Shown: piece after piece, positions 15,520 through 35,056 of the stretch
Layout of the letters: the number at the start of each line of letters is the position of its first letter
Numbering within the stretch: position 1 is the first letter of the stretch
Assembly: GCA_022822425.1 (NCBI GenBank)
Contig: JAJEBS010000118.1
Coordinates: forward strand, 1 to 35,056
From: Gemmatimonadota bacterium
GTDB taxonomy: Bacteria; Gemmatimonadota; Gemmatimonadetes; Longimicrobiales; Gaopeijiaceae
Direction: 5' to 3'
Length of the DNA: 35,056 nt
The notes under the pieces: generated by a model
Databases searched by the model: none
What the model was told of the DNA's origin: nothing
Seen by the model: the letters and a program-made list of their open reading frames with translations, nothing else
Translations under genes and position numbers: made by a program

Positions 15520-16908
15520 ATGAATTTCATCACCGGAAAGAGCATCTCCAGGCGCAGAATGTTGCAGAGCATGAGCGGCGTCATAGGGTTGCCGCTGCTC
15601 GACGCCATGATTCCGGCGGGAAGGCTGTGGTCGGCGACCGCCGGAGGACGGGCGGCCAACGACACCCGCATGGTCTTCATCGAGCAGGTGCACGGCGCGG
15701 CCGGCTGCAACGAGTGGGGTGCCTCCCAGAACCTCTGGGCCCCCGCGGCCGAGGGGAAGGACTTCGACCTCTCGCCCACCAGCCTGCGGTCGCTCGAGCC
15801 CTTCCGGAAGTACCTCACCATCGTCACCAACACCGACTCGCGCATGGCGGACGCGTTCTCGCCCGAGGAGATCGGCGGTGACCACTTCCGCACCACCGCG
15901 GTGTTCCTCACCCAGGCGCACCCGAAGCAGACCCAGGGCTCGGATCTGCACATCGGGACCTCCATGGACCAGCTCGTCGTCCAGCGCTATGGCCAGGAGA
16001 CCCCGATTCCATCGATGCAGCTCACCATCGAGAACGTCGACCAGGCCGGCGGCTGCGCCTACGGCTACGCCTGCGCCTACACCGACACGGTCAGCTGGGC
16101 ATCTCCCAGCGAGCCGCTGCCGATGATCCGGGATCCGCGCGCCGTCTTCCAGCAGCTCTTCGGAGCCGGCGGAACCCCGGAGCAGCGGGCAAAGCGCCTC
16201 CGCACCGACCGCAGCATCCTCGACTGGATGCTGGACGAGATCACCAGCCTGAAGCATGAGCTGGGACCGGCCGACCAGCATCGCGTCTCCCGCTACATCG
16301 ACAACATCCGCGACCTCGAACAGCGCATCACCCGCATCGAGATGCAGAACACGAGCGGCGAGGAGCGCGAGATCCCCGAAGCCCCCGTGGGCGTGCCGGA
16401 CGATTTCCGCGAGCACATGGAAGTGATGTTCGACCTGCAGCTGCTCGCCTTCACCTCGGACACCACCCGGGTCTTCTCGTTCAAGCTGGGCCGGGACGCG
16501 TCGCCCAGGATCTTCCCGGAGAGCGGCTCCTCGACGCCCTTCCACGCGGGCAGCCACCACGGTGGACGCGAGGAGCGGATCCTCGACTTCGCCCTGATCA
16601 ACACGTATCACGTCGGCATGCTTCCGTACTTCCTGGAGAAGCTGCAGGCGACGAACGAAGGCGACGCCACCCTGCTCGACAAGACGATGATCATGTACGG
16701 ATCGGCGATGGCCGACCCCAACATTCACAACCATGCCCGCTGCCCGCTCTTCATGGTCGGCGGCATGAACGGACTGCTCGAGGGAGAGCGGCACGTGGTG
16801 GCGCCTCCGGGAACCCCGATGGCCAACGTCATGCTCGACCTGCTGCATCGGGTGGGCCTGACCGAGCTCGAATCGTTCGGCAACAGCACCGGCACTTTTG
16901 CCGTGTAG
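15520..16908 (+). CDS. DUF1552 domain-containing exported protein
   Basis: The 462-residue product starts at ATG 15520 with a Tat-like leader (SRRRMLQSMSGVIGLPLLDAM). The family marks seen are G-L-P-L-L-D-A-M at the leader, MVFIEQVHGAAG, FRKYLTIVTNTD, an SMDQLVVQRYGQ block (C-terminal to GSDLHIGTS), a heptad-like segment (SRYIDNIRDLEQRITRIEMQ), SSTPFHAGSHHG and MIMYGSAMADPNIHNHARCPLFMVGG. DUF1552 proteins resemble sulfatase/DUF1501-type alkaline-phosphatase-fold enzymes in overall layout but their reaction is unknown. They are encoded next to DUF1592 proteins, as here, and probably act in the same periplasmic process. The upstream in-frame ATG at 15457 adds only a non-homologous stretch. Confidence 0.9.
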   Translation: MNFITGKSISRRRMLQSMSGVIGLPLLDAMIPAGRLWSATAGGRAANDTRMVFIEQVHGAAGCNEWGASQNLWAPAAEGKDFDLSPTSLRSLEPFRKYLTIVTNTDSRMADAFSPEEIGGDHFRTTAVFLTQAHPKQTQGSDLHIGTSMDQLVVQRYGQETPIPSMQLTIENVDQAGGCAYGYACAYTDTVSWASPSEPLPMIRDPRAVFQQLFGAGGTPEQRAKRLRTDRSILDWMLDEITSLKHELGPADQHRVSRYIDNIRDLEQRITRIEMQNTSGEEREIPEAPVGVPDDFREHMEVMFDLQLLAFTSDTTRVFSFKLGRDASPRIFPESGSSTPFHAGSHHGGREERILDFALINTYHVGMLPYFLEKLQATNEGDATLLDKTMIMYGSAMADPNIHNHARCPLFMVGGMNGLLEGERHVVAPPGTPMANVMLDLLHRVGLTELESFGNSTGTFAV

Positions 16909-16930
16909 GCACGCTGCGAGGAGTTGGGAC

Positions 16931-18697
16931 ATGGCAAGCAAGCGAACTTTCGCACCCTGGATGAAGCACACGCTGGCGGTCAGCGCGCTGCTGCTGGTCG
17001 CCGCCACGCCCGACGAGTCCCCCGTGGCCGATGCGGCGCAGCGGGGCGAGGGCGAGGAGATTCGCAACCTGCTGAGGCAGGGAGCGGATCCCAGCGCGGC
17101 TCAGCCTGATGGCATGACCGCGCTGCACTGGTCGGCGCTGAACGACCAGTTGGACATCGTGGAGACGCTCATCTTCGCCGGCGCCACCCTGCAGCCGGCC
17201 ACCCGTGTGGGCGGCTACACGCCCCTCCACCTGGCCAGCCGGGCCGGCAACGCCGAGGTGGTCGCGGCGCTTCTCGACGCCGGCGCCAATCCGGATATCC
17301 TGACCGGCACCGGGGCCGCCTCGCTGCACTTCGCCGCCGAGGCGGACGTGGTCGGAGTGGTGAACGCGCTGGTCGAGCACGGAGCGGATGTGAACGTGCG
17401 CGACGGCTATTCCAGCCGGACGCCGGCCATGTTCGCGGCCGCGCGCAATGCGGCGGCGGCGCTCCAGGCGCTCCTGGATGCCGGCGCAGACCCCGACCTG
17501 GTCAGCAAGACGCGCGACTTTGCCGAGATCGAAGCCGCGGACCGCGAGGAGCGGACCCGCCGGCAGCGTATCCGCGAAGCGGAAAAGGAGCCGGAGCCCG
17601 AGGAAGAGCCGGACGCGCAGCGGCCTGGACAGGGACGCGGTGGTTTTCCGGGTGCCGGTCAGGGGAATGAGCCGGAGCTGCCGCCGGATGGGCCCAAGGT
17701 GCTCTCGTCCATCGAGCAGATCGGTGTTCAGGGAGGATTCTCCCCGCTGCACTACGCGGTCCGCAACGGAAACGCCGAAGCCATGCGGGTGCTGCTGGAC
17801 GGTGGCGCCGACTTGAACCTGCAGAGCGGGGATCAGTCGTCGCCCCTGCTGCTTGCGACCATCAACGGGAACTACGACCTGGCGAGAACGCTGCTGGAGG
17901 CCGGGGCCGACCCGAACCTCCTGAGCGACGACAGCGCGGGTCCGCTGTTCGCCGCACTGAACATCGAGTGGTCGCTGCGCACCTGGTATCCGCAACCGCA
18001 GGCCTTCCGCCAACAGGAAACGGACTACCTCGAACTCATGGAGCTGCTGCTCGACGCGGGAGCCGACCCCAATGCCCGCACCACCACGCACATCTGGTAC
18101 GCCGCGTACAACGCGGGCCGCATGGGCGTCGACTTCGCGGGCGCGACCCCGTTCTGGCGGGCCGCCTACGCCGCCGACGTGCAGGCCATGAGGCTGCTGC
18201 TCGACAACGGCGCCGACCCCAACATCTGGACGTACAACATGATCAGCCCCAGGCGCTTCTTCTTCCAACGCCCCGGCGAACCGGAAGAAGATCCGTCCGG
18301 ACTGGAACCGGTTCCGCACGGGGGACCCGGCGTCCATCCGCTGCACGCCGCCTCGGGCGTCGGCTTTGGCACCTCACGCGTAGCGCAGACGCACCGGCAC
18401 GTGCCGGATGGCTGGCTGCCGGCGGTGCGCTTCCTGGTCGACGAAGTGGGCGTCGATCCCAACATCCGCGACAAGGACGGTTTCGCACCCATCCACCATG
18501 CAGCGGCACGGGGCGACAACGAGACCATCCTGTTCCTGGTGGAACGGGGCGCCGACGTGACCCTGCTCAGCCGGCGGGGGCATACCGTCGCCGACATGGC
18601 CAACAGCCCCGAGCAGCGGGCTCAGCCGCATCCGCCGACCGTCGCCATGCTGGAGAAGCTGGGGTCGAAGAACAACCACAACTGCAGATCCTGCTGA
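16931..18697 (+). CDS. Exported ankyrin-repeat protein of the DUF1592/DUF1552 cluster
   Basis: The 588-residue protein begins with a hydrophobic leader (WMKHTLAVSALLLVAATPDES). Five or more ankyrin repeats follow (G-x-T-P-L-H-x-A, with LLDAGANPD, LLDGGADLN and LLEAGADPN ends). They are split by an acidic, Gln/Gly-rich disordered insert (about 205-260) and by longer non-standard loops near 400-470. The extreme C-terminus carries a CxxC (NCRSC). Ankyrin repeats bind proteins, and in the periplasm this one likely scaffolds the DUF1592 and DUF1552 products. It starts 22 bases after the DUF1552 stop with GAGGAG at 16918-16923, so it is the third gene of that operon. A hairpin terminator follows. 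Confidence 0.88.
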   Translation: MASKRTFAPWMKHTLAVSALLLVAATPDESPVADAAQRGEGEEIRNLLRQGADPSAAQPDGMTALHWSALNDQLDIVETLIFAGATLQPATRVGGYTPLHLASRAGNAEVVAALLDAGANPDILTGTGAASLHFAAEADVVGVVNALVEHGADVNVRDGYSSRTPAMFAAARNAAAALQALLDAGADPDLVSKTRDFAEIEAADREERTRRQRIREAEKEPEPEEEPDAQRPGQGRGGFPGAGQGNEPELPPDGPKVLSSIEQIGVQGGFSPLHYAVRNGNAEAMRVLLDGGADLNLQSGDQSSPLLLATINGNYDLARTLLEAGADPNLLSDDSAGPLFAALNIEWSLRTWYPQPQAFRQQETDYLELMELLLDAGADPNARTTTHIWYAAYNAGRMGVDFAGATPFWRAAYAADVQAMRLLLDNGADPNIWTYNMISPRRFFFQRPGEPEEDPSGLEPVPHGGPGVHPLHAASGVGFGTSRVAQTHRHVPDGWLPAVRFLVDEVGVDPNIRDKDGFAPIHHAAARGDNETILFLVERGADVTLLSRRGHTVADMANSPEQRAQPHPPTVAMLEKLGSKNNHNCRSC

Positions 18698-20905: not shown

Positions 20906-21982
20906 CTACGCCGCCTTCTTCTTGAGGTGATTGAGATGAGTCCAGGGGATCAGCCCCTCGTGCTGCAGGCGACCGACTACGATGCCCGGGGCTATTCCCT
21001 GATCCTGCGCGAATGTCTGGACGTCGATTGAAGCGAAGACACCACTCGCTACAAAACGCTGCCACTGCCGCCGAGGCACGAGAAAGTTGGCTGCCCATTC
21101 GTTCGCCTGTGCTTCGACGTCGTCGTCATCCAGACTCAGATCGTCGATAAAGATCCTCCTCCTGCTGTGAAGGAGCAGGTGGGCCGCTTCGTGAAAGAAG
21201 CTGAACCAAAGGTGATCGTCGGATCCGTGACGCCCTGTAAGCGCGATTACAGGTTTTCCGGGCCTATACCACCAGGCGGCACCACTCACGCGCATCCTGG
21301 GCAACGGGTCGACTACCGCCAACGCAACGCCCGCCTCGCTACAGAGCTGTTTCGCCTCCTGGATGGCGTCCGGCATCGGGTCACCGGTCAAGTAGCGGAT
21401 CTGGCGTAGCGTTGATCTGAAACGCGGCTCATCGTAGCCAGTACAGCTCTGTTTCTCCGCATCCAATTCAACAAGCCGGAGCCATGTCCTCAGTGAGGGC
21501 TCATCGCTCTCGAAGCTCGGTGAATGCCGATAGGCCGCACGAGCCGCTCCGTATTTCGTGTCCCAAGCGTGCTTTGTCGCTACGCCAAAGAAGGACAGGA
21601 GTGTCTGTACCATCGCGCTCTCGGACGAGGGTGGATCCATTGCGCTCCGCTTCACCAGGTCTCCAACAGGAAACGTCTTCGCCCAGGCTACCAGATCACG
21701 GGCTTTCCTGGCGTCAGCCTCGCGCGCCTGAAACAGCCGATAGTCCGCCTCGATGCCGAGCCAGATGCTTGCGTCCACTCCCAGGACCATCTCCAACTGC
21801 AGAGCCGTGCCTGGTTCGATCGGGGCCCTGCCGGCGATGATCTCGCTGATGAGCTTGGGTGACCGACCACATCTTCTGGCAAGCTCAGCCTGGGAAATAC
21901 CGTGCGTGGCGAGATGCTCTTCGATCACCCAGCCGGGCGGTACCGCGTAGTCGGGCGAATACCTGTTTGCTGCCGCGGTCAT
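20906..21982 (-). CDS. higA: HigA-type antitoxin fused to ImmA/IrrE metallopeptidase
   Basis: The 358-residue protein has an N-terminal XRE/HigA helix-turn-helix (about 20-70, GISQAELARRCGRSPKLISE, with VLGVDASIWLG typical of HigA). The C-terminal ImmA/IrrE (M78) domain has its zinc site in FFHEAAHLLLH (H264, E265, H268) and the third ligand in VEAQANEWAANFLVP (E290). ImmA-type peptidases cleave partner repressors or toxins. Here the antitoxin itself carries the peptidase, a known but less studied HigA form. It is the second gene of a toxin-first operon with an 18-base gap. The region is visibly less GC-rich than its neighbours, which fits horizontal transfer. It probably represses the promoter at 22358-22386. 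Confidence 0.88.
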   Translation of the reverse strand: MTAAANRYSPDYAVPPGWVIEEHLATHGISQAELARRCGRSPKLISEIIAGRAPIEPGTALQLEMVLGVDASIWLGIEADYRLFQAREADARKARDLVAWAKTFPVGDLVKRSAMDPPSSESAMVQTLLSFFGVATKHAWDTKYGAARAAYRHSPSFESDEPSLRTWLRLVELDAEKQSCTGYDEPRFRSTLRQIRYLTGDPMPDAIQEAKQLCSEAGVALAVVDPLPRMRVSGAAWWYRPGKPVIALTGRHGSDDHLWFSFFHEAAHLLLHSRRRIFIDDLSLDDDDVEAQANEWAANFLVPRRQWQRFVASGVFASIDVQTFAQDQGIAPGIVVGRLQHEGLIPWTHLNHLKKKAA

Positions 21983-22462: not shown

Positions 22463-23488
22463 TCACGGCTTCAGCACCAGCTTGCCGAAGACCTCGCCAG
22501 ACTCGAGCCGCTCGTGGGCTTCCCGTGCCCGCTCGAGCGGCAGGACCTCGTCGATGGGCGCCCGGATGACGCCATCGAAGACGAGCTGCATCGCCCTGCG
22601 GTAGTCGGCGGGCGTGCCCATGGTGCTGCCGAGAATCGAGGCCTTCTTCCAGAAGAGGAGGGGAAGGCTGGTCTCACCGACCGGGCCGGTGGTGGCTCCG
22701 TAGCAGACCAGGCGGCCGCCCTGACGCAGGGCGCGCAGGTTCGCCTTCCAGGTGGCGGCGCCGACCGAGTCCACGATCAGGTCGACGCCCTGCCTGCCGG
22801 TGTCCTTCCAGAGCGCGCGCCCGTAGTCGACCTCGAGCCGGTCGTAGACGACCTCGGCCCCCAGTTCGCGCACGCGGGCGACGTTGTCGGCCCCGCTGGT
22901 GACCGCGTACACCACCGCGCCCGCGCGCCGCGCGATCTGTACGGCCATGGTGGACACGCCTCCCGACGCGCCGGTCACCAGCACCCGCTCGCCGGGGCGC
23001 ACCTGCCCGCGCACCACCACCGCGTGCCACGCGGTCACCCCGACCAGGCTGGCGGCGGCGGCGGCCTCGAACGGGACATCCGGGGGCACCTCGACCAGGT
23101 TGGCGGCCGGGACCACGGCGTAGTCGGCGAAGCCGCCCGGGGTGTGCTCGCCGATGATCCGGAGCTCACGGGAAGGCAGGTTCCGCCCGGGCGCGGTGCC
23201 ATCATACCAGTCGTAGTCCAGCGAGGGGTCCACCACCACCCGCGTGCCGACCGGAACGTGCGCGGCGCCGGGACCCACGGCGTCCACTACGCCCGCGATG
23301 TCCGACCCCCCGATGTGTGGCAGCGCGATGTCTATGGGAAGCCCGCGCCGCACCCAGAGGTCGAGATGGTTCATCGCGGCCGCCCGCACGGCGATCCGTA
23401 CCTCGCCGGGGCCAGGCGCCGGATCGGGCACCTCCTCGACGCGAACGACCCCGGGGCCGCCGTATTCATGGAACAGCGCGGCTTTCAT
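22463..23488 (-). CDS. Zinc-less MDR (quinone oxidoreductase-like) dehydrogenase
   Basis: The 341-residue medium-chain dehydrogenase/reductase starts at ATG 23488 (MKAALFHEYGGPGVV). The GroES-like N-terminus has NHLDLWVRRG where Zn-ADHs have a catalytic cysteine, and GGSDIAGVVDAVG. No structural-zinc cysteine loop is seen. The Rossmann part has GASGGVSTMAVQIA with VYAVTSG after it. It therefore resembles zinc-independent NADPH:quinone oxidoreductases or enoyl reductases. The ATG overlaps the fic stop (ATGA), so it is coupled to the Fic gene, an unusual pairing. A longer upstream frame was rejected since homology starts at this Met. The substrate is unknown. Confidence 0.9.
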   Translation of the reverse strand: MKAALFHEYGGPGVVRVEEVPDPAPGPGEVRIAVRAAAMNHLDLWVRRGLPIDIALPHIGGSDIAGVVDAVGPGAAHVPVGTRVVVDPSLDYDWYDGTAPGRNLPSRELRIIGEHTPGGFADYAVVPAANLVEVPPDVPFEAAAAASLVGVTAWHAVVVRGQVRPGERVLVTGASGGVSTMAVQIARRAGAVVYAVTSGADNVARVRELGAEVVYDRLEVDYGRALWKDTGRQGVDLIVDSVGAATWKANLRALRQGGRLVCYGATTGPVGETSLPLLFWKKASILGSTMGTPADYRRAMQLVFDGVIRAPIDEVLPLERAREAHERLESGEVFGKLVLKP

Positions 23489-24621
23489 CGGTCTGGTTCC
23501 TCGGGGTTCATGGGCTCGCCGCCCTCCGCGACGCGCATGAGGCTGGGGAACACGAAGATCCCAGGTCGACGGCCTCTTCCGGGGACAGCTTCGTGAAGTA
23601 TATCGGCGTCGCACAGCCGCCGCAGGATTCTGCGTGCCGTTGGCGCGGAGAGTGCAGTTTCACGGGCGAGTTGGACACTGGAAAAGATCGGTCGCTCAAA
23701 CATCCAGTCCAGAACTTCGACCGCATATCGCGTGCGGGCTACGTCCGGTACTCGGCTCTTCATCTCTTCATGGAGATCGAGAATGGCCTGAGCCCTGACC
23801 AGATCGTCCTCCGCCTGGATCCGCACGGCGTTCAGGAAAAACCTGCACCAACCGGTCCAATCGTCATCACGGGAGACCGACAGCAGCCCTTCGTAGTAGG
23901 CTTCGCGATTGGCTTCCATGTAGGGGCTGATGAAAAATGCCGGCTGGCGAATCAATCCCATCTGCCACATGAACAGCGGGACGAGCATGCGTCCCATGCG
24001 GCCATTGCCGTCATGAAACGGGTGAAGTGCCTCGAACTCGGCATGCAGGATGGCGAGCTGGACGAGGCGGTCTGGATGGTCCTGGTGCATATATCGCTCC
24101 CAGGCGGCCATGGCGTCGAGAAGCTTGTCCGCACCAACAGGAATGAACGTAGCCTCCTCGATGGAGCAACCGGCCGGTCCAATGAAGTTCCGGTTTCGCC
24201 GATAGGCGCCAGGGGATCGATACCGTCCCCGACCGCGGGACAGGAGCACGCGGTGCGAATCCCGGATGACTCGCTGCGAGAGTGGTAGTTCATTCAGCAT
24301 GTCCGCCGCGTGCTTCATCGCCATTCGGTACTGGATTACCTCCAGGATATCGTCACGACGAGCGGGAGAACTCGCCTTGCCTCTCGCCTCGAACTCCAGC
24401 ACCTCGCCAATCGTGGCCTGGGTCCCCTCAATCCGCGATGAGCGCTCAGCTTCCCGCCTCGACAACGGCGCAAGAAGGATGCGAGGATTCGGAACCCCGG
24501 AGAGCATTCCGTCGTATCTCGCCACCGCAGCAGATGCCGGACCGATCAACGGAACCAACCGAGGCCAGTCCAGTCGCCCATCGGGCGGGAACATCCCCTC
24601 GTGATATCGAACCGGAGCCAT
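23485..24621 (-). CDS. fic: Fic-domain protein (probable AMPylator) with Fic_N and C-terminal winged helix
   Basis: The 378-residue protein carries the catalytic motif HPFHDGNGRMGR (200-211), complete, with H200 as base. The N-terminal SSRIEGT (61-67) is the inhibitory-helix motif with the glutamate that blocks ATP gamma-phosphate binding, which makes it a class II Fic. A C-terminal winged-helix-like segment (SSVQLARETALSAPTARRILRRL) suggests DNA or repressor-like contacts. Fic enzymes usually transfer AMP onto target hydroxyls. I chose ATG 24621 because GGAGGAA lies 8 bases upstream; an ATG at 24669 would extend into the repeat array. The gene overlaps the MDR gene by 4 bases and is divergent from the methyltransferase. 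Confidence 0.9.
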   Translation of the reverse strand: MAPVRYHEGMFPPDGRLDWPRLVPLIGPASAAVARYDGMLSGVPNPRILLAPLSRREAERSSRIEGTQATIGEVLEFEARGKASSPARRDDILEVIQYRMAMKHAADMLNELPLSQRVIRDSHRVLLSRGRGRYRSPGAYRRNRNFIGPAGCSIEEATFIPVGADKLLDAMAAWERYMHQDHPDRLVQLAILHAEFEALHPFHDGNGRMGRMLVPLFMWQMGLIRQPAFFISPYMEANREAYYEGLLSVSRDDDWTGWCRFFLNAVRIQAEDDLVRAQAILDLHEEMKSRVPDVARTRYAVEVLDWMFERPIFSSVQLARETALSAPTARRILRRLCDADILHEAVPGRGRRPGIFVFPSLMRVAEGGEPMNPEEPDR

Positions 24622-25022
24622 CAGGTATCTTCCTCCCTCGCCACGGTTGTCGATCATCGTGAGCGTCAAGAAGATTTGTCGATCACCGAAGAGAAAATAT
24701 GAGCGTCAAGACTCGTTGTCGATCACTTCGACGAGAGAATGAGCGTCAAGGAGATTTGTCGATCATCCGTGAGCGCCAACGAGCGTGTTCGATCATCCGT
24801 GACCCGCAAGCGAATTGGCTGCGCACCCGCGTGGGACGGCAGGACCGAAGGGGCATCCGCAACGGATTGACCGGGACGCAGCCGATCAGGATCCGGGGAC
24901 ACCCCATGGCAGGTCAATCCTTGAATCCCGGTATCGCGGTTTCTAGCTTGCCGGATGGAAGCCAGTGGGAGCAGCGGGATCATCGGCCGGAGGAGTGCGC
25001 TCATGAAGAGGTTGTACGGGTA
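24622..25022. promoter_or_regulatory. Long divergent region between fic and the methyltransferase
   Basis: This 401-base gap holds a dyad repeat array in its left half (24647-24825). Its right half is plain sequence with no evident homology except a six-codon leader ORF at 25003-25023. An open frame runs through it on the plus strand, but nothing in it looks like protein beyond the methyltransferase start. Weak promoter-like hexamers (TTGAAT at 24921) are not convincing. Confidence 0.55.
24647..24825. repeat. Array of 26-bp imperfect-dyad repeats with 30/40-bp phasing
   Basis: Three close units have the form TGAGCGTCAA-N6-TTGTCGATCA, starting at 24660, 24700 and 24740. A fourth, slightly changed unit starts at 24770 and a degenerate fifth at 24800. 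A lone right arm lies at 24647-24656. The two arms are inverted copies matching at 8 of 10 positions, and the two mismatches are the same in the three close units. Unit spacing is 40, 40, 30 and 30 bp, so units stay on roughly the same helix face. Gaps between units are 4 or 14 bases, the 14-base ones purine-rich. The array begins 26 bases upstream of the fic start. It is not a CRISPR: the gaps are far too short. Confidence 0.85.
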
Positions 25023-25023
25023 G
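25003..25023 (+). CDS. Possible six-codon leader ORF before the methyltransferase
   Basis: An ATG at 25003 preceded by a strong GGAGGAG (7-base spacing) opens a six-codon frame (MKRLYG) that ends at TAG 25021-25023. That stop overlaps the GTG start of the methyltransferase (TAGTG). It could be a reinitiation leader or the real ribosome landing site for the downstream GTG. It is too short to judge as a gene. Confidence 0.35.
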   Translation: MKRLYG

Positions 25024-25922
25024 TGCCCAGGATCGTCTTCGGAGACAACCTCGAGGTGCTCCGCGGGATGCCGGACGGGGTGGCCGACCTCATCTACATC
25101 GATCCGCCTTTCAATACCGGCAGGACGCAGCGGCACAACCGCATCCGCACCACGCGTGCGCAGAACGGCGACCGCACGGGCTTCAAGGGCGAGCGCTACC
25201 GGACCGCGTCCCTGGGCACGCGGCGCTTCCGCGACAGCTTCGACGACTACCTCGGCTTCCTCGAGCCGAGACTGATCGAGGCGTACCGCGTCCTGGCCCC
25301 GCACGGATCGCTCTACTTCCACATCGACTACCGGGAGGTCCACCGGTGCCGCTTCCTGCTGGACGAGCTGTTCGGGCCGGACAATCTCCTGAACGAGATC
25401 ATCTGGGCGTATGATTTCGGGGCACGGCCGAAGCGGCGCTGGCCCGCCAAGCACGACAACATCCTCTTCTACGTCAAGGATCTGGCGAACTACGTCTTCA
25501 ACGTCGACGCGATCCAGAGAATCCCGTACATGGCTCCGGGGCTGGTGGGCCCCGAGAAGGCCGCCCGCGGCAAGTTGCCCACCGACACCTGGTGGCACAC
25601 CATCGTGCCCACCAGCGGCGCCGAGCGAACGGGCTACCCGACCCAGAAGCCGCTGGGCATCCTGCGGCGCATCGTGACGGCTTCTTCCCGCCCGGGAGAC
25701 CTGGTGCTGGACTTCTTTGCGGGGAGCGGCACCACGGGAATGGCGGCGCACGAGCTGGGGCGCAGGTTTCTCCTCGTGGACAACAATCGTGAGGCGCTGG
25801 AAGTGATGGCAAAGCGATTTGCGGCGGTACCGGGGGTTCGGTGGCAGGGATTCGAGCCGCGGACTCGAGGGTCGGAGGAGGGCTTGCCTTCGGCCCCGGC
25901 GTCGGAAGACGGCTTGCGGTGA
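25023..25922 (+). CDS. Orphan site-specific DNA methyltransferase (beta class, N4/N6)
   Basis: The 299-residue protein starts at GTG 25023 (MPRIVFGDNLEVL). Motif order is the catalytic DPPF (27-30, IYIDPPFNTG) first, a target-recognition region in the middle, and the SAM-binding FxGxG (FAGSG, 232-236, LDFFAGSGTTGMAA) at the C-terminus. This is the beta class of amino-methyltransferases (N6-adenine or N4-cytosine). No restriction endonuclease is encoded nearby, so it is an orphan or regulatory methylase. A longer upstream frame (ATGs at 24699 and 24906) was rejected because homology begins at the GTG. It overlaps the next gene by 4 bases (GTGA). The recognition sequence is unknown. Confidence 0.9.
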   Translation: MPRIVFGDNLEVLRGMPDGVADLIYIDPPFNTGRTQRHNRIRTTRAQNGDRTGFKGERYRTASLGTRRFRDSFDDYLGFLEPRLIEAYRVLAPHGSLYFHIDYREVHRCRFLLDELFGPDNLLNEIIWAYDFGARPKRRWPAKHDNILFYVKDLANYVFNVDAIQRIPYMAPGLVGPEKAARGKLPTDTWWHTIVPTSGAERTGYPTQKPLGILRRIVTASSRPGDLVLDFFAGSGTTGMAAHELGRRFLLVDNNREALEVMAKRFAAVPGVRWQGFEPRTRGSEEGLPSAPASEDGLR

Positions 25923-27046: not shown

Positions 27047-28180
27047 GTGGCAGAAAGGCCCCCGACGTTGCGATCCGCCAGTCTTCTCCTGACAGCTCTC
27101 CTGCTGACGGCTTGCGAGTCCCCCGATTGTGCAACGTGGAATACCGAAGCCTTCTTCAAGCAGGCAACTCCCGGCGATACGAGGACTTGCCTGCAAGCGG
27201 GGGCGGATGTGTCGGCCCGGGATTCAGTCGGTCTGACTCCCCTGCATCATGCCGCGGCCTGGAGCGATTACCCGGGTGTGGCGGAGGCAGTCATCGACGC
27301 CGGGGCCGACATCGACGCCACGGACGACTACTCCGGCACAAGCCTCACGCATCGGGCGCCCCTGGACATGGCTGCGCGGTACAACGGGAATTCCCAGGTG
27401 GCTCTCGTCCTTCTCGGAGCCGGCGCACGCGCCGAAACCCGACACCTGCTCGGCGCGGCGATTTTCAACGAGAATCCGGAGGTAGCCCTGACCTTCGTCC
27501 GCGCCGGAGTCGACGTGAACGCCACGCACCCCGGAGGACCAACAGCCCTTTCCCTCGCGGCACGGTCCAATGAGAACCCGGAGATGGTCCTGGCTCTTGT
27601 GCGGGCCGGAGCCGATCTCGACGCTCGTGCGAGCTACCTCGACGAGGCACCGCTCCACCTGGCAGCGGCAAACAACGAGAACCCCGAAGTAGCGTTGGCC
27701 CTCGTAAACGCGGGATCCGACGTAGACGTCGAGAACCGGCATGGCGATACGCCTCTCCTGAGGGCGTTGTATGCCAACGAGAATCCCGAAGTGGCTCTTG
27801 CCCTTGTCGAAGCCGGGGCGGACGTGAACGCCCGAGAGCTGGCAACGTCCGCAACACCCCTGCATCTCGCGGCTTCGTTCAGCCGTGGCCCCGAGGTCGC
27901 CGCGGCGCTCATCGAGGCCGGGGCCGACCTGAACGCCAGGACCGCAAGGGGTGAGACACCCTTGCACCGGGCGGCGAATGCGGAGAATACGGACATCCTG
28001 AACGTCCTGCTCGAGGCCGGCGCCGATGTGTCGGTCCGGGACTACATCGGGCGGACGCCTCTGGAAACAGCAGAGCTCAACGGTGATTCAGAGGCGGTTG
28101 AGATGCTCCGCCGCGCGGGCGGCCAAGGGGTCTTCGTCCCCCAACCGAGGCCGGGGGCACCCCCCGTTGACCGTTATTGA
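27047..28180 (+). CDS. Ankyrin-repeat lipoprotein
   Basis: The 377-residue product starts at GTG 27047, one base after the queE stop, with a signal peptide ending in a good lipobox (LLLTAC, Cys23). About eight ankyrin repeats follow (LHHAAAW, VIDAGADIDA, LVRAGADLDA and others), with an unusual shared N-E-N-P-E-V/M tip in four consecutive repeats spaced 102, 105 and 102 bp. The C-terminus is Pro-rich. It is likely an inner- or outer-membrane-anchored protein-binding scaffold. Its TGA overlaps the start of the candidate metal-regulated operator at 28178. Whether it belongs to the upstream queE transcript or acts with the metal genes is unclear. Confidence 0.88.
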   Translation: MAERPPTLRSASLLLTALLLTACESPDCATWNTEAFFKQATPGDTRTCLQAGADVSARDSVGLTPLHHAAAWSDYPGVAEAVIDAGADIDATDDYSGTSLTHRAPLDMAARYNGNSQVALVLLGAGARAETRHLLGAAIFNENPEVALTFVRAGVDVNATHPGGPTALSLAARSNENPEMVLALVRAGADLDARASYLDEAPLHLAAANNENPEVALALVNAGSDVDVENRHGDTPLLRALYANENPEVALALVEAGADVNARELATSATPLHLAASFSRGPEVAAALIEAGADLNARTARGETPLHRAANAENTDILNVLLEAGADVSVRDYIGRTPLETAELNGDSEAVEMLRRAGGQGVFVPQPRPGAPPVDRY

Positions 28181-34428: not shown

Positions 34429-35056
34429 ATGAGCTTCCCCACACTCGATCGATCCCAGGTCCGCTCCTTGTTCGTCGGTTGGACGATCCCGTGTCTCCTG
34501 GTGTTCGTCGCATGCGGCGATTCACCCTCCGGGCGTCCCGATCCTCCCCTGGTCGAGGGCGAACGCCTGGGGACGGCCGGGGCCCACGAACACGGCATCG
34601 CCCGGCTGGGCCTCGCCGTGGACGGCGCCCGCGTCACCATCGACCTGGAACTCCCCGCAGAATCCGTGTTCGGCTTCGAGCGCGCCCCCCGGTCGGCGGA
34701 GGAGCGGGCCGCAGCAGCGGAGGCCCTCGACAGGCTTCGAACGGGCGGCGCGCGTCTCATCGCCTTCCCGGACGGTGCGGCCTGTGCGCTGGATTCGGCG
34801 GAGGTGCAGGCGCCCGAAGGCGTAGAAGGTGACCAGGCCGGCGAGGAGGAGCATGCTCACGAGGACGAGCATGCTCACGAAGAGGACGAGCATTCTCACG
34901 AAGAGGAGCATGCTCACGAAGAGGAGCATGCTCACGAGGAGGACGAGAGCAACGTACACCAAGACGTGCGCCTCCTCGCCTCCCTCACCTGTTCCCTTGA
35001 GCCCATCGGACCGGCGAGCCTGCGGTTTGCGGATCTCCTGCCCGACGTGGTGCAGG
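34429..35056 (+). CDS. ZrgA-like (DUF2796) His-rich zinc-binding lipoprotein, 3' truncated by window edge
   Basis: The frame from ATG 34429 is open to the window end (209 codons). It has a lipoprotein-type leader ending in VFVAC (Cys29), then AHEHGIARLGLAVDG with IDLELPAESVFGFERAPRSAEERAAA. That is the DUF2796 pattern of ZrgA, the periplasmic zinc-binding part of the Vibrio ZrgABCDE uptake system. An acidic His-rich segment of 35 residues (34843-34947) holds five HxH pairs (10 histidines). This segment is a zinc sponge in such proteins. Transporter subunits would be expected just to the right. A candidate operator lies 42 bases upstream. Confidence 0.88.
   Translation, partial: MSFPTLDRSQVRSLFVGWTIPCLLVFVACGDSPSGRPDPPLVEGERLGTAGAHEHGIARLGLAVDGARVTIDLELPAESVFGFERAPRSAEERAAAAEALDRLRTGGARLIAFPDGAACALDSAEVQAPEGVEGDQAGEEEHAHEDEHAHEEDEHSHEEEHAHEEEHAHEEDESNVHQDVRLLASLTCSLEPIGPASLRFADLLPDVVQ
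34843..34947 (+). repeat. In-frame tandem repeat encoding acidic HxH units
   Basis: Five copies of a CAT-GCT/TCT-CAC core separated by runs of GAG/GAA/GAC codons, with unit lengths of 15-21 bases, make the His-rich segment of the ZrgA-like protein. Such near-identical short repeats can gain or lose units by slippage, so the number of metal ligands may vary between strains. Confidence 0.8.

What the first reader, a model, noticed from the sequence alone, without database searches (positions are those of the whole stretch)
24647..24825. Phased array of dyad repeats between fic and an orphan methyltransferase
Three close, one altered and one degenerate copy of TGAGCGTCAA-N6-TTGTCGATCA sit at 40, 40, 30 and 30 bp spacing, plus a lone arm 26 bases before the fic start. 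Both arms are inverted copies at 8 of 10 positions, with the same two mismatches in the three close units, so this looks like a protein-binding site multiplied in helical phase, not random hairpins. Each right arm contains GATC. Candidate binders are an unseen regulator, the Fic winged helix, or the methyltransferase marking its own control region. I know of no described Fic system with such an array; that it is new is inference.
Basis: partly seen in the sequence, partly recalled or inferred. Interest (0 to 1): 0.75.

Follow-up and report, generated by a model that had tools for sequence, protein, structure and literature searches.

The report
Operator array of a SoFic defence gene
The repeats are most likely docking sites for the neighbouring toxic defence protein Fic, which would switch off its own gene from there; the same site layout flanks related genes in several phyla and, unexpectedly, also occurs in phages in which no such gene was found.

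Summary
The array is real: ten alternating 10-bp half-sites (consensus TTGNCGNTCA) at 24647-24809, spacers 3/4, 6 and 14 bp, found nowhere else in its genome assembly. Best reading: operator array of the adjacent SoFic-type fic. Of 28 fic loci fetched by protein, 17 carry such an array (13 of 24 outside the genus), against 0 of 228 distal windows. More distant SoFic-like genes carry another half-site at 4/7/14 bp. A residue of the Fic recognition helix covaries with half-site base 7. A promoter facing fic lies inside the array. CccR, a related Fic-HTH protein, is published to repress its own promoter through inverted 10-bp repeats (PMC9755527). The methyltransferase is not the common factor. 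Not in the papers I saw: the many-site grammar, arrays 3' or on both sides of fic, array relics where fic was lost, and viral contigs, cyanophages S-T4 and S-RIM12 included, with arrays of either half-site class and no Fic found. Binding was not tested. Verdict: new variant of a known kind; the phage arrays are the boldest lead.

The parts
24647..24656 (+). half-site 1 (TTGTCGATCA), starting 26 bp before the fic start codon
24660..24669 (-). half-site 2; spacer 3 from half-site 1
24676..24685 (+). half-site 3; spacer 6
24700..24709 (-). half-site 4; spacer 14
24716..24725 (+). half-site 5; spacer 6
24740..24749 (-). half-site 6; spacer 14
24756..24765 (+). half-site 7; spacer 6
24770..24779 (-). 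half-site 8 (TGAGCGCCAA); spacer 4
24786..24809 (.). half-sites 9 and 10, altered (6/8 and 7/8 matches); spacers 6 and 4
24694..24722 (-). promoter-like TCGACA-N17-TATTTT facing fic; the -35 hexamer lies in half-site 5, half-site 4 lies inside the N17, the -10 hexamer in the 14-bp spacer next to it
   Evidence: the motif recurs in 6 of 7 genus loci examined, this one included
23485..24621 (-). fic: SoFic-type protein, 378 aa; inhibitory motif SSRIEG (61-66), Fic motif HPFHDGNGRMGR (200-211), C-terminal winged helix (about 300-357)
24906..25922 (+). orphan beta-class DNA methyltransferase (PF01555; class recalled, start codon chosen by eye), divergent from fic across the array; possibly co-regulated

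Best explanation
The array is the operator of the neighbouring SoFic-type fic gene. The Fic protein dimerises and its C-terminal winged helices bind the 10-bp half-sites; several dimers line up on one face of the DNA, cover the fic promoter inside the array, and so repress fic (negative autoregulation of a toxic AMPylating enzyme). Because the array also lies in front of the divergent methyltransferase gene, it may tune that gene too. Shown here: the array, its grammar, its association with the Fic clade, the co-change of half-site and recognition helix, and the overlap with a promoter-like sequence. Inferred: binding by Fic, repression, cooperativity, AMPylation activity of this Fic, any effect on the methyltransferase.
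For: (1) The array is unique in the assembly; the 4 g1 genomes with an intact close fic have it beside fic. (2) Clade-A fic loci: 29 of 40 carry a chain of half-sites at or over the threshold of 6; shuffled flanks reach at most 4 in 1600. Controls: 0 of 228 windows at least 700 bp from fic in the fic loci, 0 of 152 windows of methyltransferase loci, 0 of 16 loci of the other Fic subfamily. Twelve of the 40 had been fetched by the motif itself; of the 28 fetched by protein, 17 pass, or 13 of 24 without the four g1 loci already known from the pattern. (3) Half-sites differ between Fic lineages while the spacing grammar stays: TTGWCGMTCA, TTGTGTGCCA, TTGTCSGCCA, TTGTGTAWCA, and a CTTATTAAAG class with 4/7/14 spacing in the SoFic-proper subfamily, on plasmids of Citrobacter, Bosea and Sinorhizobium among others. 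(4) Arg near the start of the recognition helix (Pro327 in the window) goes with G at half-site position 7: six Arg loci 0.67-1.0 of distinct half-sites, 24 non-Arg loci 0-0.5. (5) The model has a C-terminal winged helix and matches SoFic (Foldseek E 2e-15; PADLOC SoFic E 3e-103). (6) Sigma-70-like promoters facing fic lie in the array, 2 found against 0.0 expected. (7) The Fic-HTH protein CccR protects inverted 10-bp repeats in its own promoter and represses it (PMC9755527, passages seen).
Against: No binding was measured. In 10 of 40 clade-A loci the array is only on the 3' side of fic and in 7 on both sides, which simple autorepression does not predict. Eleven of 40 clade-A loci have no chain over threshold with the TTG....YCA motif; some of these show arrays only in the de novo search (L119, L121, L146), others in neither (L125, L126, L152, L153, L155). 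Viral contigs carry the arrays with no Fic found, so another binder exists or the phages use the host's. CccR's two sites are 26 bp apart, a spacing not seen here. The helix/base covariation rests on three groups of Arg loci; its p-value (5e-5) is not corrected for relatedness, and 10 of the 40 loci, seven of them with Arg, were left out of it.
Confidence: 0.8

Rival explanations
1. The array is the recombination or end site of a small mobile fic cassette: array-fic-array units move or are lost by recombination between arrays, and binding by Fic is secondary.
For: Arrays on both sides of fic in several lineages, direct repeats where I read them; left and right arrays of one genome are more alike than arrays of sister genomes in two cases (L055 96/104, L066 97/104, against 80-91 between L055, L056 and L066); fic plus arrays absent as a block in two sister genomes (G129, G135), the homology breaks lying 1768 bp apart; fic absent with the array wholly or partly left in four g1 genomes.
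Against: No recombinase or transposase was seen beside it in the window; in L056 the two arrays are no more alike (89/104) than arrays of different genomes; in g62 the breaks lie outside the arrays and the empty site holds 335 bp of other sequence, so this is not a clean insertion; half-sites change with the Fic recognition helix; 22 of the 29 loci with an array have it on one side only by the chain score. Ordinary homologous recombination between repeats would explain the losses.
Confidence: 0.08
2. An unseen host regulator, not Fic, binds the array and controls fic and other genes, including phage genes.
For: Viral contigs carry arrays of the same grammar with no Fic found; orphan arrays persist in G001 and G007, whose only Fic homologues are distant (49% and 36% in G001, 35% in G007).
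Against: Half-site class follows the Fic lineage and its recognition helix; no other sites of the pattern in the window's assembly; the g1 orphans look like deletion relics.
Confidence: 0.08
3. The methyltransferase binds or methylates the array (GATC in five arms) and controls its own promoter.
For: All or part of the array is left upstream of this methyltransferase in 8 of the 9 g1 genomes that have the gene at this place, G003 being the exception; GATC in five arms of the window.
Against: 0 of 152 windows from 17 related methyltransferase loci reach the array threshold; GATC is not conserved; in other phyla the arrays go with fic, mostly without a relative of this methyltransferase nearby.
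Confidence: 0.03
4. The palindromes act as RNA hairpins (terminators or processing sites).
For: Inverted 10-bp arms with short loops; 3' location in some loci.
Against: By eye, arms differ at positions 4 and 7 without compensating changes (no covariation test was run); no terminator-like site found in the window's array; spacers of 4, 6/7 and 14 are kept while half-site sequences change.
Confidence: 0.02

Closest known systems
CccR of Yersinia pseudotuberculosis (Fic-HTH protein with autorepression; PMC9755527, passages seen)
   Same: Fic enzyme with C-terminal HTH; dimer; inverted 10-bp half-sites near its own -35/-10; negative autoregulation through the HTH.
   Different: Reported there: two half-sites separated by 26 bp. 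Here up to ten half-sites with spacers 4/6(7)/14, in other loci also 3' of the gene, and in phages.
SoFic anti-phage defence (PDB 3EQX, 3ZCN; PMC12249575, abstract start and passages seen)
   Same: Domain order and fold; Fic motif and N-terminal inhibitory motif; PADLOC SoFic model E 3e-103.
   Different: About 26% identical to SoFic in the structure alignment; below the NCBIfam SoFic equivalog cut-off (174.7 of 550 bits); my terms 'repeat', 'upstream', 'winged' and 'dna-binding' occur 0 times in that paper's main text.
CbFic2 of Coxiella burnetii (PMC10628234, passages seen)
   Same: Class II Fic with winged HTH that binds DNA; DNA binding is proposed there to go with a deAMPylating dimer.
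   Different: Studied there with random DNA sequences; no operator is defined in the passages seen.

Membership tests
SoFic-type class II Fic | Fic motif HPFx(D/E)GN(G/K)R | tested here: met
   HPFHDGNGRMGR at 200-211; its core residues invariant in 11 aligned sequences; motif as in the abstract listed
SoFic-type class II Fic | N-terminal inhibitory motif (S/T)xxxE(G/N) | tested here: met
   SSRIEG at 61-66, invariant in 11 sequences; motif definition recalled, example TSAIEG seen
SoFic-type class II Fic | C-terminal winged helix | tested here: met
   model helices 300-309, 315-322, 326-338, strands 343-346 and 355-357, block pLDDT 89-95
SoFic-type class II Fic | match to curated SoFic models | tested here: inconclusive
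   PADLOC SoFic E 3e-103; NCBIfam SoFic equivalog below its cut-off
SoFic-type class II Fic | AMPylation and phage defence | not testable with these tools
   -
autoregulatory Fic operator (CccR type) | inverted 10-bp half-sites at the fic promoter | tested here: met
   (promoter by consensus only)
autoregulatory Fic operator (CccR type) | half-sites 26 bp apart | tested here: not met
   outward spacers here are 3-4 and 14, inward 6
autoregulatory Fic operator (CccR type) | footprint by the Fic HTH and derepression in a fic mutant | not testable with these tools
   -
REP/BIME elements | many copies scattered in the genome | tested here: not met
   4 hits, all in the array (assembly 89% complete)
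insertion sequence or transposon ends | transposase gene between or beside the ends | tested here: not met
   Pfam search of 10 window ORFs, the neighbours of the array among them, found none; not every ORF of the window was searched

The most novel reading that the evidence does not exclude
Phages carry SoFic operator arrays as a counter-measure or a hijack: phage-borne copies of the array bind the host's SoFic-type protein, either holding it on DNA in a harmless state (a DNA decoy antitoxin, in line with the published idea that DNA-bound CbFic2 is a deAMPylating dimer) or using it as a ready-made regulator of phage genes. This would make the array the physical interface of a defence and counter-defence contest, with two half-site classes in phages matching two Fic subfamilies.
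Probability: 0.22. Interest if true: 0.88.

Novelty: new variant of a known kind. Interest (0 to 1): 0.7.

Why it matters
It proposes a readable operator code for a widespread family of AMPylating defence toxins whose regulation is little known: operators could be predicted from a genome and specificity perhaps swapped at one residue. The arrays 3' of fic, the relics left where fic was lost, and the arrays in phages with no Fic found, named cyanophages with a cultured host among them, make the question of how cells keep such a toxin quiet, and whether phages interfere, directly testable.

Tried and rejected
REP-like element: rejected. Methyltransferase-linked control region: rejected as the general rule. 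RNA hairpin or terminator: no compensating changes by eye, no terminator. Transposon ends: considered because arrays flank fic on both sides; no transposase seen in the window ORFs searched, and the g62 breaks do not coincide with array ends.

Led nowhere: an E. coli relative of the Citrobacter fic by DNA similarity (no match); close Fic relatives in viral contigs (none); named relatives of TCA-type phage arrays (one search gave one distant terminase-like match, Phage C75C1, not followed; no match); the Citrobacter array against named phages (8 weak matches, best E 0.03, in gut phages, not followed); the generalised g62-type half-site in viral contigs (120 loci, capped list, 0 neighbours at spacer 4 or 14). 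No clear array beside fic on the Synechocystis (L170) and Phyllobacterium (L171) plasmids. The Novosphingobium plasmid fic (L143) scores 47 de novo against a null maximum of 45 but fails the motif chain and is counted as without array. Literature: eight searches listed no paper that by title or shown abstract describes such arrays at fic genes or in phages; several lists were cut (for example 20 of 964, 15 of 60, 15 of 803 papers shown), and subscription papers and preprints are not held.

Results dropped or weak: one search used 30 of 40 loci (nine with fewer than two usable half-sites, one with a gap at the residue). Seven of the dropped ones have Arg: L119 shows G at position 7 in 4 of 4 half-sites, L151 in its three clearest at a borderline score, L150 is not significant, and L125, L126, L152 and L153 have no array. 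In one search the L071 right array was cut out of register and its row is void. The 40 clade-A loci include two duplicate pairs (L116 and L069; L114 and L115 with identical fic). The AT-type scoring motif was drawn from the same loci, so its counts there are partly circular; the de novo scores are not. The spacer-6 control of the AT-type viral scan also shows a small excess at spacers 14 and 4 (5 and 4 neighbours).

Full report
OBSERVATION. The array is as described and a little larger. The window holds ten half-sites of consensus TTGNCGNTCA in strictly alternating orientation at 24647-24809, eight of them perfect at the eight fixed bases. Inward pairs (TGA..CAA then TTG..TCA) are 6 bp apart throughout; outward pairs are 3-4 or 14 bp apart. 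Same-orientation half-sites therefore repeat at about 30 and 40 bp. Four dyads match within 3 mismatches against none in 100 shuffles, and the same search of the whole own assembly finds only these four.

GENUS COMPARISON. With at most one mismatch the dyad is found in 6 of 147 genomes searched, the window's own included, all in its genus (6 of 11 genus genomes). Four of these (G000, G004, G009, G010) have fic beside the array, at 90-100% protein identity. G001 and G007 have six half-sites, one of them degenerate in G007, and no fic there; the order is dehydrogenase, array, methyltransferase. They hold only more distant Fic homologues elsewhere (49% and 36% in G001, 35% in G007). G002 keeps two half-sites and G005 one, also without fic; G003 has fic fragments and no array. 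The aligned left ends of the fic-less loci keep an AGAATATG stretch that lies inside the array of fic-bearing G004. I therefore infer loss of fic with progressive loss of sites. A degenerate search of the 11 genomes at up to 2 mismatches finds the arrays and only three other places, against 13 hits for the reversed control pattern, so there is no sign of a wider regulon.

OTHER LINEAGES. An exact-pattern scan of a public genome collection gave 23 stretches, of which 18 have a further half-site at spacer 3-5 or 13-15. In 13 of the 23 a homologue of this Fic lies near the array; record titles include Desulfovibrio, Alphaproteobacteria, Planctomycetota, Deferrisomatales, a cyanobacterium, Gammaproteobacteria and Gemmatimonadetes. 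Fetching fic by protein instead and looking for repeated half-sites de novo showed the same 4/6/14 grammar with other half-sites: TTGACGGTCA, TTGTGTGCCA, TTGTCSGCCA, TTGTGTAWCA. With a motif-based chain score (TTG....YCA, threshold 6), 29 of 40 loci of this Fic clade pass, against a maximum of 4 in 1600 shuffled flanks. As controls, 0 of 228 windows far from fic in the fic loci, 0 of 152 methyltransferase windows and 0 of 16 loci of the other Fic subfamily pass. Twelve of the 40 had been fetched by the motif; of the 28 fetched by protein 17 pass, and 13 of 24 without the four g1 loci. Position among the 40: 12 5' only, 10 3' only, 7 both sides, 11 none; among the 28: 10, 5, 2 and 11. The 40 include two duplicate pairs.

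The second SoFic-like subfamily (about 36% identical) has arrays with a different half-site, about CTTATTAAAG, and spacers 4/7/14. De novo scores reach 54 against a null maximum of 45 in 444 shuffles. On plasmids, four-half-site scores are 48 in Citrobacter freundii, 51 in Thermus (CTTGTGATAC), 52 in Bosea, 47 in Sinorhizobium fredii and 45 in Riemerella (TTGTTTTCAA), against a null maximum of 45 in 200; with six half-sites Citrobacter (110) and Riemerella (112) stand clear of 15 shuffles each (79 and 92), Thermus barely (92 against 88). In Citrobacter the last half-site overlaps the fic start codon. The other three rhizobial plasmids are weaker (39-43), Synechocystis and Phyllobacterium show nothing. 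With a fixed motif drawn from these loci, 7 of 16 loci and 6 of 10 plasmid records pass a threshold above the maximum of 1920 shuffles.

WHO BINDS. The array follows Fic, not the methyltransferase. The Fic model has a confident C-terminal winged helix whose recognition helix spans 326-338. Among 30 usable clade-A loci, the residue at its N-terminal end (Pro327 in the window) is Arg in six, and in those G stands at half-site position 7 in 0.67-1.0 of the distinct half-sites; in the 24 others the fraction is 0-0.5 (Mann-Whitney p 5e-5, not corrected for relatedness; the six Arg loci form three groups in the tree). An Arg-G contact is the natural reading, an inference. Precedent: CccR, a Fic-HTH protein, protects AGATAATCAT-N26-ATGATAATCT in its own promoter, represses it, and a dimer-interface mutant fails to (PMC9755527, passages). 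CbFic2 binds DNA through its winged HTH and is proposed to switch to deAMPylation as a DNA-bound dimer (PMC10628234, passages).

HOW IT WORKS. Two sigma-70-like promoters face fic inside the array (0.0 expected). TCGACA-N17-TATTYT recurs in 6 of 7 genus loci examined, including the four fic-less ones, where it would now face the dehydrogenase; G009 lacks the exact motif. Fic bound to the half-sites would cover this promoter: negative autoregulation of a toxin. The constant 6-bp inward pair and the one-turn choice between 4 and 14 bp outward spacing suggest several dimers side by side on the DNA; this is inference. Whether the divergent methyltransferase is tuned too is open.

WHAT DOES NOT FIT SIMPLE AUTOREGULATION. 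Arrays lie 3' of fic or on both sides in many loci; in some lineages the two arrays read as direct repeats. In L055 and L066 the two arrays of one genome are more alike (96/104 and 97/104) than arrays of different genomes among L055, L056 and L066 (80-91), but in L056 they are not (89). Two sister genomes lack fic and arrays altogether at the site where another has both, but the homology breaks lie outside the arrays and other sequence fills the gap, so I do not claim a precise mobile cassette.

PHAGES. A scan of viral contigs for the inward pair with spacer 6 gave 41 stretches, 27 of which have a further half-site at spacer 4 or 14 (histogram 4:16, 14:24, one at 22). Spacer 7 gave 33 stretches with 0 such cases, and a scrambled half-site gave 8 with 0. 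The 27 fall into eight groups by protein-level similarity. None of these records matches the Fic domain (0 of 27; many are fragments), and 3 of 27 have a weak winged-helix match (E 5e-5 to 3e-4), in G438 inside an ORF whose relative in L074 matches replication initiation proteins. Neighbours include terminase large subunits, an integrase and, weakly, a portal or head-tail adaptor gene. The 38 positive loci fall into 27 groups, and no held piece of the 120 encodes a Fic detectable by tblastn, while controls were found. Close relatives are named cyanophages of Synechococcus: S-RIM12, S-CAM9, Syn30, S-T4. In S-T4 a three-half-site array lies at 108440-108490 between hsp20 and regA; no feature of the record is annotated as Fic and tblastn with 65 Fic proteins finds none in its four pieces. 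In S-RIM12 the array follows psbD. Whether the hosts have a matching SoFic could not be checked.

VERDICT. An operator array of a SoFic-type toxin: a variant of the published Fic autorepression, new, as far as my searches show, as a many-site grammar and as a trait shared across the family. The phage arrays deserve follow-up most.

Noticed in passing
27 of the 41 loci L072-L112 and 38 of the 120 loci L222-L341: Viral contigs carry arrays of either Fic half-site class with the right spacing, and no Fic gene was found in them.
   Followed up: partly
NC_048049.1 (phage S-T4) 108440-108490; NC_047716.1 (S-RIM12) about 164290-164390: Named cyanophages hold CTTATTAAAG arrays between hsp20 and regA, or after psbD.
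   Followed up: partly
L051, L058, L061, L169, L170, L175: SoFic-like fic genes lie inside or beside restriction-modification or methyltransferase genes (annotated in L170 and L175; by eye in L051, L058, L061; helicase and DUF1156 annotated in L169). In L051 and L058 the array lies between fic and the next genes.
   Followed up: partly
L065 1312-2572: array-fic-array sits between genes that look like tilS and pyrG by eye (no family search run); the fic has a run of N.
   Followed up: no
window 20906-21982 (-): HigA-like antitoxin with IrrE peptidase domain, best PADLOC match PD-Lambda-2_B; a second possible defence gene near fic.
   Followed up: no
window 34803-34952: Tandem 18-21 bp repeats that by eye would encode a His/Glu-rich stretch.
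   Followed up: no
window 16898-18697 and 27047-28180: Two ankyrin-repeat proteins in the region.
   Followed up: no
   Followed up: no
H87-H94: The Citrobacter array weakly matches stretches of uncultured gut phages, several annotated at an RNA polymerase sigma-W factor (best E 0.03); may be chance.
   Followed up: no
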